The position numbers and the translations under genes are program-made. The notes under the pieces are model-generated. The model saw nothing but the letters and a program-made list of their open reading frames with translations, searched no databases and was not told where the DNA came from. DNA of 64,000 bases, taken from contig JAYKKT010000064.1 of the NCBI GenBank assembly GCA_036023115.1, positions 8,564,501-8,628,500 of the forward strand, written 5' to 3'. The DNA comes from Brasenia schreberi (Eukaryota > Streptophyta > Magnoliopsida > Nymphaeales > Cabombaceae). Positions 22,777-26,905 of the stretch are shown one piece after another (position 1 is the first letter of the stretch; each line of letters opens with the position of its first letter).

Positions 22777-23115
22777 TGCTATAATTATAGAGAAATGCAG
22801 CAGATAATAAATAATAAAATATATTAATAAAAAAAGAAAGAGTAATAATGGAGATCGGAGGAGGGGGCGGACCTCCAATGGAGGCCCCCCCTCTTTCTCT
22901 CTCTCTTTTAATCTCAACAACTTTAAACCCTAATACAGCCTATCAGCCCTTATATAAGAAGTTGTAAAACGTAAAATGACCAAAATACCCTAGTATATAA
23001 AATTACCAAAATACCCTTACAACTTCGGACAATTACAATAATACTCTAAACATCAATTTTATGGTCCTAAGATATTATTTGTACTAAAACTTACTCTAAA
23101 CTCATATCTTCAACA
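22777..23115 (-). repeat. 3' LTR of element A
   Basis: 339 bases from TGCTATAATTATAG to TATCTTCAACA on the plus strand. The minus strand holds a TATA-like CTTATATAAGGGC. The polypurine-tract complement CCCTCCCTCAAG follows at 23116. Confidence 0.85.
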
Positions 23116-23214
23116 CCCTCCCTCAAGTTGGGAGTGAAATACTTCGAACTCCAAACTTGCCAAAAATCTTCATCTATCTACAACATTCTTCATTTGTCTT
23201 CATCACTAATTTAA

Positions 23215-23765
23215 TCTTCAACAGCTTCTTTGGCTGTAATATCTTCAACTCAACCTTCCTAGCTGATCATATCAAGCAGCATCTCTGGCTGCAATATCAA
23301 CTCAGTCATCCTGGCTGATCATCTCAAGCAACATCTCTAGCTGCAATATAAACTTAGCCTTCCTAGCTAATCATCTTAAGCAGCATCTCTAGCTGCAACA
23401 TCAACTCAGCCATCCTGGCTGATCATCTCAAGCATCTCTAACTGCAACATCAACTCAGTCTTCTTAGCTGATCATCTCAAGCAGCATCTCTGGCTGCAAT
23501 ATCAACTCAATCATCCTTGTTGATCATCTCAAGCAACATCTCTGACTGTAGCATCAACTCAGCCTTCCTGGCTGACCATCTCAAGCAGCATCTCTGGCTG
23601 CAACATCAACTCAGTCTTCCTGGTTGATCATCTCAAGCAGCATTTATGACTGCAACATCAACTCAGCCTTCCTGGCTGATCATCTCAAGCAGCATCTCTG
23701 ACTGTAATATATACTTAGTCTTCCTGGCTAATTATCTCAAGCAGTATCTTTGGCTGCATATAAAA
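23215..23765. repeat. Tandem repeat block (period about 50-56 bases) in element A
   Basis: About ten imperfect copies of a unit combining TCAACTCAGCCTTCCTGGCTGATC and ATCTCAAGCAGCATCTCTGGCTGCAA. It lies between the last captured gene piece and the polypurine tract. The GGCTGCAA core is shared with the repeat block of element B. It does not encode a recognisable protein. Confidence 0.9.
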
Positions 23766-24139
23766 AAAAACATTTCTTCAGTCCTCATAACTGCAATTTT
23801 CAACATACATCTCTTTTCTATAAACTTTCTTCATTTTGTTTTTCCAATGAAGACAATCATCACGTACTAATCCTCTTTACTCTTTTCCTGAATTTTTTTG
23901 CTCTCTTAAATATTTCCTCAAAAACTTGATGTTCATGTTAATCATCTCTTCTTGAGCATTTCATCGAACACTTACGTGTAGGTAAACCTCCTTTTTTTGA
24001 ACATTTCATCAAACACTTATTGTGCATCCTTTGTCTGGAACTTGATAGCTGGCTTATGTTTTTTTTTAAATTCCCTCAGAGACATCATGCTTTGCTAACA
24101 GATTTTCCAAGGTACGATTGTGTAGTTTTTTTTTTTGTT
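23766..24139. other. Element A spacer without recognisable content
   Basis: T-rich stretch between the tandem repeats and the HSP70 piece. It contains weak repeats of GAGCATTTCATCGAACACTTA-like phrases (about 23955 and 24000). No coding match was seen. Confidence 0.4.
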
Positions 24140-24270
24140 AGAACAAAGGCTCCAATTTAACTGGGAGAGTATTGCTGCCCGTTTGCTTCAACCCATGCAT
24201 CACCATTAGGTGCTTTAACTATCTTATAAGGAACCATTTTCATCTCATTCTGAGTCTGTGAATCATCAAA
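24140..24270 (-). pseudogene. Captured mitochondrial HSP70 fragment
   Basis: The minus strand reads DDSQTQNEMKMVPYKIVKAP then NGDAWVEANGQQYSPS, a stop, then IGAFVLT. This is the nucleotide-binding domain of mitochondrial HSP70 (DnaK type), where the family has a Gln at the stop position, so a C-to-T change (CAA to TAA) is the simplest cause. HSP70 is a matrix chaperone. Only about 43 residues are present and they cannot function. An unrecognised segment (about 24271-24400) separates it from the NDR kinase end. Confidence 0.8.
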
Positions 24271-24399
24271 GTCATCGAAGTTACCAAAACAGCTTGAACC
24301 AGAGTTAAACTTTATGTAGGCCCAAATACACCGAAGCCACCTCCAAAACTCTTTCATGCAAAAATTTGATGTGAACATTCTACTGATTAAAACTCGGAG

Positions 24400-24790
24400 T
24401 TGGCTTAGACTATCTCCGAAGAGACTGAGGATCGAGTGAAGTAGATCGTAAGTTGGGTGGAGGTGAACTCTCGGGACTTTCAGAGACTTCCATTTCGGTA
24501 GGCAACATGTTGAGGAAGCTCCCTTGGACAGGTTGACTGGGACTGGTTTCAACGTCAAACAATGTCTTGATTGACGGCCTCTTTGGCTTGCCTTTTTCTT
24601 TTTCCTTCAGATCCACTATTCCAGCAACACCTTGTTCGTTCAAAATATCAAAAATTTTATACGTATTTCCCACAAAATTCACATCTTTTGATAAAAGCAT
24701 CTTCCTCCATGGGCCTGACTTTGACGAGGACTGTGTAGCTGCCCCAGACTCTTCAAACTTCTCAAAATTTTGAGTGACTAACTCATCATC
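24400..24790 (-). pseudogene. Captured NDR kinase C-terminal exon(s)
   Basis: The minus strand encodes DELVTQNFEKFEES, SGPWRKMLLSKDVNFVGNTYK and GKPKRPSIKTLFDVE, then PVQGSFLNMLPTEMEVSESP. This is the AGC-kinase C-terminal tail with the hydrophobic motif, as in plant NDR/tricornered Ser/Thr kinases that control growth and polarity. It follows directly after the kinase N-lobe piece (24790-24922) with the catalytic core missing. The join falls where both parent segments have an Asp-Glu pair. Confidence 0.75.
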
Positions 24791-24925
24791 CTAGAATGAA
24801 CAATAAAGCTTCACAATACAAGGACTATCAACCTCTACTAGAAGGTTCCTTTCTGCTTTGACATGTTCCACCTGGCCTCTGCGAAGCATCTCTGATTTCT
24901 TTAACTTTTTCATAGCATAAACATT
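24790..24925 (-). pseudogene. Captured NDR kinase N-lobe fragment
   Basis: The minus strand encodes GNVYAMKKLKKSEMLRRGQ, then VEHVKAERNLLVEVDSPCI and VKLYCSF, then TAG. The AMKKL lysine is the ATP-binding Lys of AGC kinases and the NDR family signature is clear. The stop replaces the Gln of CSFQD, another CAG-to-TAG type change. The N-lobe is fused in frame to the NPF transporter piece on one side and jumps to the C-terminal tail on the other. Confidence 0.85.
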
Positions 24926-25065: not shown

Positions 25066-25681
25066 CTACTTTATTTATGTGGATAATGGATAGCAGTTAG
25101 GATAGCAATTACCATTTTTCTTTCCCAAAAAACGTGGGGATAAGACTTACTGGTTTACTTTCTCATCCAATCAGAAAAGAAAGTTTTCATAACTACTTTC
25201 CCACAAAAACAGGCAAGTAATTTGGAACTTTACTTTTCCAACATTTAATTATTCAAAAATTTCGAAATTACCTTTCAATTTTTTTTTCATAATTTTGTGT
25301 AACCTTTCTTCGAAAAAAAAATCTGGAACACATCATTTTTGACAGCCTGGTCGAAGATATTGTCCATCCTGCACCTGACCTGGATCAGTGCGCCTCTTAG
25401 CAAGAGGCAGAAACCTTTGAAGAAATGCATCTACCATCAACTTAGCAAGACTCCCAGACTTCATCCTTCCCACTTCAAATTCTCACATAAAACGAAAAAA
25501 AAAAATCACTGCATCACATCTTTTAACTGAAAGTTGTCATCCCTTTTGTCTCCTAAATCAAAGGTCCTCCTTCATTTTAGCTATATCACAACTTCCCAGA
25601 AATTGTAATTCAAATTTTGAGTAAATGCTAACCCCATAAGGCTTCAAAAGAGGAATAGTTCACCTAGATACACGTTGGCCC
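25066..25681 (-). other. Element A segment without recognised content
   Basis: About 600 bases, AT-rich on average, between the HEATR5-like piece and the NPF piece. No protein match was recognised on either strand. It may be captured intron, UTR or original element sequence. Confidence 0.4.
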
Positions 25682-26010
25682 CTAACCTGATTCGTGATAA
25701 AGCTGAGCAACCAGGTCTAAAAGGAGGCCGTGCAGATCAACCAGTGAAGGATAGTCGTTCTGGCTTACAAGCCTGTCCTGATTAATAAGCCAATCAAAGA
25801 CAAAATTTTCAAGTCCACACCAAAGTTTCTCTGTTCGTCCTTCCTGCGGGCAGCACTCCACAAAACGAATACATGCAGAGCAAAATATGCTTTCTACTGC
25901 TAGCTTTTGCTGGACAGTGGAAGCATCGGTTGCACCTTTTGGAGATTCACTTTCTCTCCATTTAAGAAGATCTTCTAGAAGAGGCACTGGTGTATGACGT
26001 GCCACCATTT
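25682..26010 (-). pseudogene. Captured fragment, probably of a HEATR5/SWEETIE-type gene
   Basis: An open stretch of about 110 residues on the minus strand: VPLLEDLLKWRESESPKG, FCSACIRFVECCPQEGRTEK and LENFVFDWLINQDRLVSQND. It looks like a helical HEAT-repeat protein and, from memory, resembles plant SWEETIE (HEAT repeat-containing protein 5). The assignment is tentative, but the reading quality shows real coding origin. It starts immediately after the SMU1 piece, in another frame, so the join breaks translation. Confidence 0.55.
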
Positions 26011-26313
26011 GAATGTTTGCAAACAATTAGTAGTCTTCATATCCCAAACTTTTATTGTACAATCGCTGGAAGCTGTAATAACATGGTTGTCGTCACTGCT
26101 AAATATAGCATCATTCACATAAGATGTGTGGCCTCGAAATTCCTTCAACAGCTTCCCAGATTTGAGACCATGGATTCTGGCAGTACTATCAAAAGAAGTG
26201 CTAAGAATTTGGCTTCCATCTCGAGAGAATGAAAGACTGGTGACTCCCTGAAAAATGTGCACGTTCAAGTCTACGCAAGTATTGCCCAGTCCTCAAGAGC
26301 CAGACCTGTACAG
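26008..26313 (-). pseudogene. Captured SMU1 (WD40 splicing factor) fragment
   Basis: The minus strand encodes VQVWLLRTGQYLRRLERAH, and after a frameshift near 26250, VTSLSFSRDGSQILSTSFDS, ARIHGLKSGKLLKEFRGHTS and VITASSDCTIKVWDMKT, ending CLQTFK. These are consecutive WD40 repeats of SMU1, a spliceosome-associated protein. About 100 residues are present, compared with roughly 510 in the family. It reads through several repeats without a visible intron, which fits capture from spliced RNA. Confidence 0.9.
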
Positions 26314-26520
26314 ATTTCTTTTTCATCATTTCAAACTTCTCTTCTTCATTTCCTAGATAATCTGCTTCATGCCCGTCATGACCTTCATCCAAGGCATGCC
26401 CTCTCATTCTCATTGACATCTTCCTAGTCAGCCTGCTTGCAGCTTTTTTTGCAGTGGACTCCGTAAAAGATAAGATTTCCAATTCCTCCTTTATTACAAC
26501 AGAATCTCAATCCTCGCCAC
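26314..26520 (-). pseudogene. Unidentified coding-like segment at the 5' end of element A
   Basis: The minus strand reads EELEILSFTESTAKKAASRL, TRKMSMRMRGHALDEGHDG and EADYLGNEEEKFEMMKKK, then fuses to SMU1 in the same frame. It is charged and open, lies just inside the primer site and is probably another host gene piece. I do not recognise the parent. A remnant of the element's own leader or gag is the alternative. Confidence 0.4.
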
Positions 26521-26551
26521 CAACTAATAATCTCAAAAAAACACATTGTAG

Positions 26552-26563
26552 GCTCTGATACCA
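26552..26563 (-). promoter_or_regulatory. Primer binding site of element A (tRNA-iMet)
   Basis: The minus strand reads TGGTATCAGAGC directly after the 5' LTR end. This sets the element's orientation and places it with copia-type elements. Confidence 0.85.
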
Positions 26564-26905
26564 TGTTATAATTATAGAGAAACGCAGCAGATAATAAATA
26601 ATAGAATATATTAATAAAAAAAGAAAGAGTAGCAATGGAGATTGGAGGAGGGGGCGGACCTCCAATGGAGGTTGCCCCCTTCTTTCTCTCTCTTTCTTAA
26701 TCTCAGCAACTTTAAACCCTAATATAGCCTATCAACCCTTATATAAGGAGTTGTAAAATATAAAATGACCAAAATACTCCTAGTACAGAAAATTACCAAA
26801 ATGCCCTTACGACTTCAGACAATTACAATAATACTCTAAACATTAATTTTACGGTCCTAAGACATTATATGTACTAAAACTAACTCTAAAGTCATATCTT
26901 CAACA
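26564..26905 (-). repeat. 5' LTR of element A
   Basis: 342 bases, TGTTATAATTATAG to TATCTTCAACA on the plus strand, aligned end to end with 22777-23115. Most differences are transitions. Confidence 0.85.

What the first reader, a model, noticed from the sequence alone, without database searches (positions are those of the whole stretch)
22777..26905. An LTR retrotransposon that has collected pieces of at least five host genes
Element A has paired LTRs, a near-perfect 5-bp target duplication, a tRNA-iMet primer site and a polypurine tract, but no gag or pol. Its interior is a string of sense-oriented host gene pieces: an unidentified segment, SMU1, a HEATR5/SWEETIE-like segment, an NPF transporter N-terminus, NDR kinase N-lobe and tail, and mitochondrial HSP70. 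Single-gene capture by plant LTR elements is known (for example Bs1 of maize). This many unrelated genes in one 4.1 kb unit is unusual. The structure is seen directly; the gene identities rest on remembered family signatures.
Basis: partly seen in the sequence, partly recalled or inferred. Interest (0 to 1): 0.88.

Follow-up and report, generated by a model that had tools for sequence, protein, structure and literature searches.

The report
Mobile element collecting host gene RNAs
This stretch of plant DNA is a mobile element, lacking the usual genes for moving itself, that carries pieces of six different plant genes, three of them shown to lack their introns and so likely copied from the plant's messenger RNAs and, in one case, likely from a circular RNA; related elements in the same genome carry pieces of other plant genes.

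Summary
Confirmed and extended. Element A (22777-26905, minus strand) is an LTR retrotransposon without detectable gag or pol. In the same 1.06-Gb plant genome at least five sister copies share cargo, and relatives with related LTRs and a shared core module carry other genes: 20 Pfam families in A and the relatives read, all sense (19 of 30 sense frames, 0 of 30 antisense frames in ten elements). Against native genes, the SMU1, FRY and NDR pieces (and HSP90 in a relative) lack their introns. The FRY piece is circularly permuted: exon 7's donor end is joined to exon 1's acceptor end, and the piece makes 94.5% of one turn of a 709-nt exon circle; likely a reverse-transcribed circular RNA. Two joints share 7 and 10 nt, others 0-1. 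Capture by LTR elements is known (Bs1 and soybean TRIMs, up to three genes); a maize survey of over 31,000 elements found none with two standard genes. New here: multi-gene RNA capture as a family habit, module exchange, circRNA capture. NPF and HSP70 introns, expression and organism are untested.

The parts
26906..26910 (.). target duplication copy, ATTCG
   Evidence: 4 of 5 identical to 22772-22776
26564..26905 (-). 5' LTR, 342 bp
   Evidence: 40 of 40 scored genome matches 88-100% identical (3749 first-look candidates)
26551..26563 (-). primer binding site TGGTATCAGAGCC abutting the LTR (tRNA-iMet type, recalled)
26477..26550 (-). leader; part shared with other family members
26315..26476 (-).
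   Evidence: six further loci at 91-94%, one of them inside a relative; native-like exon L090; PRONE, E 3.9e-41, in frame beside it in L090
26008..26305 (-). SMU1 piece: three native exons joined, introns absent
25687..26008 (-). FRY (MOR2-PAG1_N gene), exon 3 from base 61 to exon 7, introns absent
25348..25686 (-). FRY exons 1, 2 and start of exon 3, joined behind exon 7 at a back-splice joint (between 25687 and 25686)
25007..25347 (-). core module M1 shared by about 30 further places in the genome, with different cargo around it in those read
24922..25006 (-). NPF (PTR2 family) N-terminal piece
   Evidence: same segment in L018, L019, L021; PTR2 downstream in L019
24410..24928 (-). NDR kinase cDNA from mid-exon to the native stop, kinase-domain middle deleted at a 10-bp repeat (24789-24780); 3' UTR follows
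24088..24273 (-). mitochondrial-type HSP70 piece
23193..23795 (-). about ten 52-bp tandem repeats
23116..23124 (-). polypurine tract GAGGGAGGG abutting the 3' LTR
22777..23115 (-). 3' LTR, 339 bp
22772..22776 (.). target duplication copy, GTTCG

Best explanation
The 4.1-kb element is an LTR retrotransposon without detectable gag or pol whose interior is a chain of sense pieces of six host genes, most likely gathered when a borrowed reverse transcriptase switched from element RNA onto host mRNAs and, for the Furry-type gene, likely onto a circular RNA. Shown: the LTR anatomy; the source genes (NPF by way of a relative); all pieces in sense; introns missing for SMU1, FRY and NDR against the plant's own genes; an exact back-splice joint and almost one full turn of the FRY exon circle; shared 7-nt (NPF/NDR) and 10-nt (NDR deletion) sequences at two joints; at least five sister copies; relatives with other cargo, two of them with A's first half and a different second half. 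Inferred: transcription from the LTR, packaging with host RNAs in particles of an autonomous partner, minus-strand template switching at short matches, integration by the partner's integrase, and module exchange between co-packaged element RNAs.
For: Introns. SMU1: 11 loci (A included) match the 310 bp in one piece, while native genes match in blocks 18-149, 144-278, 270-310 (18 of 18 candidates scored), with AG and GT at the block edges of the C74 gene. NDR: native C65 gene in six blocks over 12 kb (26 of 26). FRY: natives C70 and C81 in seven blocks each (16 of 16); all seven C70 exons are bounded by AG and GT. HSP90 in relative L022: 1441 bp continuous, native C74 gene in seven blocks (33 of 33). 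Orientation: in ten elements 19 of 30 sense frames and 0 of 30 antisense frames gave a Pfam family at E 0.001. FRY: exon 7 ends GAATCAG|GT and exon 1 is preceded by CATACAG|; the element reads GAATCAG-GTTAGGGG. The piece begins at base 61 of exon 3 and, after exons 4-7, 1 and 2, ends at base 21 of exon 3, 39 nt short of a 709-nt circle. Joints: GGAAATG for NPF/NDR; ATGATGAGTT in NDR, where sister copy C64b still holds most of the kinase-domain cDNA. Family: A and the relatives read hold 20 Pfam families at or above cut-off. Module exchange: L013 and L014 share A's first half but then differ; TFIIA-gamma was named by Pfam in L013, and L014 is 99% identical to it there.
Against: The SMU1/FRY joint shares only 1 nt and the FRY/M1 joint none that I can see, so microhomology is not universal. 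If the NDR parent was the paralogue in L072 and not L073, the NPF/NDR overlap falls from 7 to 5 nt. FRY departs from a perfect splice product by a missing ATAG at the exon 1/2 joint (6 of 6 copies) and by 10 missing nt in exon 7 (seen in the 5 copies printed). The back-splice string was found by pattern in 5 of 6 copies, not in L011. Introns were not tested for NPF or HSP70 (the HSP70 search did not complete), and the RopGEF piece lies within one exon. An autonomous partner was not searched for, and no RNA or particle data are at hand. Element B gave no Pfam family in sense or antisense; its one cargo call rests on PDB matches. Relative L006 gave none in sense.
Confidence: 0.85

Rival explanations
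1. The FRY piece came from a linear, exon-scrambled FRY RNA (trans-splicing of two pre-mRNAs), or from a switch between two FRY mRNAs, and not from a circle.
For: Any RNA with exon 7 joined to exon 1 would give the same joint; switching is likely elsewhere in the element.
Against: A plain switch between two mature mRNAs would have to hit a donor end and an acceptor start exactly (about 1e-4 for random positions). Start and end lie 39 nt apart in one exon, i.e. 94.5% of one turn; for a linear tandem that closeness has a chance of about 0.11. The two native FRY loci show the exons once, in normal order.
Confidence: 0.15
2. DNA-level capture, as in Helitrons or Pack-MULEs, with the LTRs acquired around it later.
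For: Multi-gene cargo is typical of Helitrons (recalled).
Against: Introns are missing in the four genes tested; Pfam-named pieces are all in sense; primer site, polypurine tract and LTRs are in place, and no inverted repeat of 30 bp or more was found in 22000-28000 (shorter ones were not asked for).
Confidence: 0.03
3. Separate processed pseudogenes inserted by LINEs into the element one after another.
For: LINE-like copies are abundant in the window, and a fragment sits inside element B.
Against: By eye, no poly-A tails or target duplications at piece ends (no search made); LINE insertions would fall in either orientation (the one in B is antisense to B), whereas the Pfam-named cargo is all sense; sister copies share the same joints.
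Confidence: 0.04
4. Read-through transduction of neighbouring genes at one locus.
For: Transduction is the account of Bs1 given in review PMC13317346 (passages).
Against: Native SMU1, FRY, NDR and RopGEF-like loci lie on different contigs or, where a contig is shared, megabases apart, and the FRY piece is permuted.
Confidence: 0.02

Closest known systems
Bs1 of maize (review PMC13317346, passages)
   Same: LTR element carrying pieces of several host genes (three: H+-ATPase, xylan endohydrolase, beta-1,3-glucanase); exons only according to PMC4717578
   Different: six genes here, one of them permuted; relatives with different cargo; no circular-RNA piece is reported for Bs1 in the passages I read
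Gene-bearing soybean TRIMs such as GmaRetroS15 (PMC4717578, section 13 read)
   Same: short elements with both LTRs and 5-bp duplications, exons only, up to three host genes, most with two or more copies
   Different: those are 1.2-1.4 kb; this one is 4.1 kb with a core module and tandem repeats, and cargo differs from member to member of the family
Gene-capturing maize LTR retrotransposons (PMC2774510, passages)
   Same: 425 intact elements with gene fragments
   Different: the authors state that no single element held fragments of more than one standard nuclear gene under their conditions; here several members do
circRNA-derived pseudogenes of mammals (Dong et al. 2016, known here only through reviews PMC6965350 and PMC5408686, passages)
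   Same: genomic copy with a back-splice junction; LTR sequences noted near mouse cases
   Different: here the copy is inside a plant LTR element, flanked by other captured pieces, so a route (template switching by an LTR-type reverse transcriptase) can be proposed from its ends
LTR-mediated retroposition model (Tan et al., via PMC5408686, passages)
   Same: microsimilarity-driven switching between element RNA and cellular mRNA; repeated switching foreseen in theory
   Different: here many pieces in one element, and likely a circular template

Membership tests
LTR retrotransposon | paired direct LTRs with TG..CA ends | tested here: met
LTR retrotransposon | primer site next to 5' LTR and polypurine tract next to 3' LTR | tested here: met
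   the matching tRNA is recalled
LTR retrotransposon | target duplication | tested here: met
   4 of 5 in A, 5 of 5 in the C89 copy, 4 of 5 in the C64 copy, none seen at C87a, where the LTR match begins only at base 54; not testable in C87b and C45, of which one LTR was fetched
LTR retrotransposon, autonomous | gag and pol | tested here: not met
   no such Pfam domain in 6 frames: non-autonomous
TRIM | very small size (gene-bearing ones 1.2-1.4 kb in PMC4717578) | tested here: not met
   4129 bp
Pack-MULE | terminal inverted repeats; captured introns kept | tested here: not met
   no inverted repeat of 30 bp or more in 22000-28000; introns absent in three of A's pieces
Helitron | no LTRs and no target duplication; RepHel in autonomous ones | tested here: not met
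   LTRs and a target duplication instead
circRNA-derived sequence | back-splice junction of a downstream donor with an upstream acceptor | tested here: met
circRNA-derived sequence | internal introns absent | tested here: met
   with a 4-nt and a 10-nt departure
circRNA-derived sequence | the circle is seen as RNA | not testable with these tools
   no RNA data

The most novel reading that the evidence does not exclude
A plant LTR-retrotransposon family works as an RNA collector: LTRs, primer site, core module, repeats and polypurine tract form the vehicle, while cargo slots on both sides of the core are filled again and again from spliced host mRNAs and from at least one exonic circular RNA, and halves are exchanged between elements. 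It would be the first circular RNA caught inside a plant mobile element with its entry and exit points readable.
Probability: 0.75. Interest if true: 0.9.

Novelty: new variant of a known kind. Interest (0 to 1): 0.85.

Why it matters
Exon shuffling by retroelements is usually argued from single cases. Here one family in one genome offers many chimeric inserts whose parents can be looked up in the same assembly, sister copies at different stages, and joints readable to the base, so the rules of template choice and switching become testable. The FRY insert ties a likely circular RNA to an LTR-type reverse transcriptase and gives a route for circRNA-derived DNA, whose mechanism of integration a 2020 review calls unknown (PMC6965350, passages). 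Such inserts could also mislead gene annotation.

Tried and rejected
Rejected identities: SWEETIE/HEATR5 for the FRY piece (Pfam and native genes say MOR2-PAG1/Furry; the name Furry is recalled). My first reading of the FRY permutation as a jump from an mRNA 5' end was dropped when the native sequence showed an acceptor before exon 1. A circle was considered for HSP90, whose N-terminal part follows the C-terminal part in some relatives; not pursued because the piece includes the terminal KDEL exon.

Led nowhere: two of three protein-database searches were empty; PDB gave nothing for NPF and nothing of note for FRY (best E 0.059) or the NDR tail (best E 0.68); NCBIfam named 0 of 5; Pfam did not name one flanking copia-like piece; the pattern count of polypurine-LTR joints (24 matches with up to 3 mismatches, 0 in the control) is no copy-number estimate; a joint-overlap script gave meaningless numbers because its anchors were badly chosen, and the overlaps in this report are read from sequences printed. 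The HSP70 parent search did not complete. One search counted WD40 twice; with 19 distinct families in ten elements the all-sense chance is 2^-19, about 2e-6 (my arithmetic).

Literature: searches (titles and abstract starts seen); passages seen in PMC13317346, PMC4717578, PMC2774510, PMC3726574, PMC5408686, PMC6965350; section 13 of PMC4717578 read whole. PMC2899935 is not held. In these searches I saw no plant case of a circRNA inside an LTR element and no family with this breadth of cargo; most subscription journals are not held.
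Full report
What is there. Element A lies at 22777-26905 on the minus strand, apparently inserted into an older copia-type element: the flanks read like plus-strand pol (recalled, and Pfam named nothing in the one flanking frame tested). It has a 342-bp 5' LTR and a 339-bp 3' LTR, 91-92% identical, K2P 0.086, about 3.3-6.6 My at recalled plant rates. The target duplication is 4 of 5, the primer site TGGTATCAGAGCC abuts one LTR, and a polypurine tract abuts the other. 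No gag or pol domain was found in six frames.

Cargo. Reading 5' to 3': leader, RopGEF, SMU1, FRY (two blocks), core module M1, NPF, NDR kinase, mitochondrial-type HSP70, about ten 52-bp repeats, polypurine tract. SMU1 matches SMU1 chains at E about 5e-40, among many WD40 proteins, some of which score higher through many stretches. FRY passes the MOR2-PAG1_N cut-off (28.9 against 27) but falls below it when the whole frame is scored (23.7); its native genes confirm it. NDR matches STK38 and plant NDR kinases. HSP70 matches mitochondrial Stress-70 best. NPF has no match of its own; the same DNA segment in relative L019 is followed about 250 bp on, same strand, by a PTR2 match, E 1.9e-18. At C52 the matching frame is open and runs on into PRONE, the RopGEF domain, E 3.9e-41.

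The family. The window lies in a 1.06-Gb assembly. The LTR query gave 3749 first-look candidates, of which 40 were scored, all 88-100% identical. The cargo query found at least five other copies sharing A's cargo in whole or in part (C64:5558117-5561165, C89:4908440-4911183, C87:9574548-9576847, C87:2933778, C45:2508539). Besides these, about 30 places in the same table match module M1. The 21 loci L018-L038 fetched with that query share M1 or the SMU1 piece, and a match to the family's LTR is seen in the fetched stretch of 20 of them, all but L024. I read ten of these 21 through Pfam in sense (L018-L022, L024, L027, L034, L038; L030), plus part of L013 and L006 (no family). Together with A, 20 families reach Pfam's cut-offs: exonuclease, protein kinase, TDBD, PTR2, MULE (FAR1-like gene or transposase, not resolved), PPR, Glu/Gln-tRNA synthetase, HSP90, ribosomal S3Ae, V-ATPase C, syntaxin 6/10/61, actin, Ras, WD40, DUF3444, AUX/IAA, CH, HSP70, MOR2-PAG1_N, TFIIA-gamma. 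In ten elements read on both strands (A and nine of the relatives), 19 of 30 sense frames and 0 of 30 antisense frames gave a family at E 0.001. Element B gave none on either strand (the plus strand was read outside its LINE).

Captured as spliced RNA. Native SMU1 genes match in three blocks separated by introns, while 11 loci, A included, match without interruption. The native C74 gene shows AG and GT at the block edges. Native NDR on C65 matches in six blocks over 12 kb. The two native FRY genes match in seven blocks each. HSP90 in L022 is continuous over 1441 bp, while native C74 HSP90 matches in seven blocks.

A circular RNA. In native FRY the exons run e1 to e7. In A the order is e3 (from base 61), e4, e5, e6, e7, e1, e2, e3 (to base 21). 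All seven native C70 exons are bounded by AG and GT. The odd joint unites the donor end of e7 (GAATCAG|GT) with the acceptor end of e1 (ACAG|GTTAGGGG), which is what back-splicing makes. The exons sum to 709 nt and the piece lacks 39 nt of one turn, so it covers 94.5% of the circle. The back-splice string was found in 5 of 6 copies by pattern; the sixth, L011, missed the pattern although its alignment is continuous. Against a perfect product, ATAG is missing at e1/e2 in 6 of 6 copies and 10 nt are missing in e7. I read this as reverse transcription round, or along a nicked, FRY circular RNA. A linear exon-scrambled transcript is the main rival.

Joints. NPF and NDR share GGAAATG at their joint if the parent was the NDR gene in L073, 5 nt if it was that in L072. 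In A the kinase-domain part of NDR is gone between two copies of ATGATGAGTT; the sister C64 copy still holds most of it as cDNA. Five HSP90 loci share a deletion of about 300 bp with an 18-bp overlap. SMU1/FRY shares 1 nt and FRY/M1 none that I can see. So some joints fit switching or slippage at short matches and some do not show it.

Modules. L013 and L014 share A's leader, RopGEF, SMU1 and FRY, then have a diverged M1-like stretch and a different second half, TFIIA-gamma by Pfam in L013. Leaders just behind the primer site differ between relatives. What the members seen have in common is LTR, primer site and, in most, the core; repeats and polypurine tract were seen in A, its copies and some others.

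How it most likely works. Shown: anatomy, sources, intron loss in four genes, orientation, permutation, joints, copies. Inferred: the element RNA is packaged with host RNAs by an autonomous partner; reverse transcriptase, copying towards the 5' end, jumps to a host mRNA or circular RNA and back, often at short matches; the chimeric DNA integrates and is copied on; co-packaged element RNAs exchange halves.

Known and new. Bs1 carries three genes, soybean TRIMs up to three, and maize LTR elements one each in a survey of over 31,000 elements. A review foresees repeated switching in theory and cites mouse circRNA-derived copies near LTRs. I class this as a new variant of a known kind: the same kind of event, raised to a family habit and likely extended to circular RNA.

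Noticed in passing
window 5886-10022 (-): Element B, with LTRs and 3' end related to A, primer site at 9719-9731 and a polyprenyl (geranyl/solanesyl) diphosphate synthase piece in sense near 8495-8740 (PDB 3apz E 4.1e-22); a LINE-like fragment is inserted antisense at 8790-9624. No clear target duplication seen by eye.
   Followed up: partly
window 5412-5634: A third, truncated LTR-like copy of the same broad family beside element B.
   Followed up: no
L022, L028, L029, L033, L036, L038: HSP90 (endoplasmin-like) cDNA relatives; five loci share a deletion of about 300 bp with an 18-bp overlap, and in some an N-terminal part follows the C-terminal end.
   Followed up: partly
window 25347-25007 and loci L018-L038: Core module M1 ends at nearly the same base (..GGTGACGATGCA) in many relatives whatever cargo follows; why this point is fixed is unexplained.
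   Followed up: partly
window 23193-23795; 7082-7338: Tandem repeats with a GGCTGCAACA-type motif near the 3' end of both A and B; function unknown.
   Followed up: no
G000:C66:20527981-20529542: A relative (primer site seen) whose RopGEF match is split by about 70 bp, with M1-NPF downstream; possibly an earlier stage of A.
   Followed up: no
window 10.5-13.7k, 19.5-21.8k, 46.4-49.5k, 54.5-55.6k: Several LINE-like copies about 93-97% identical to one another (endonuclease and reverse transcriptase frames, identity recalled).
   Followed up: no
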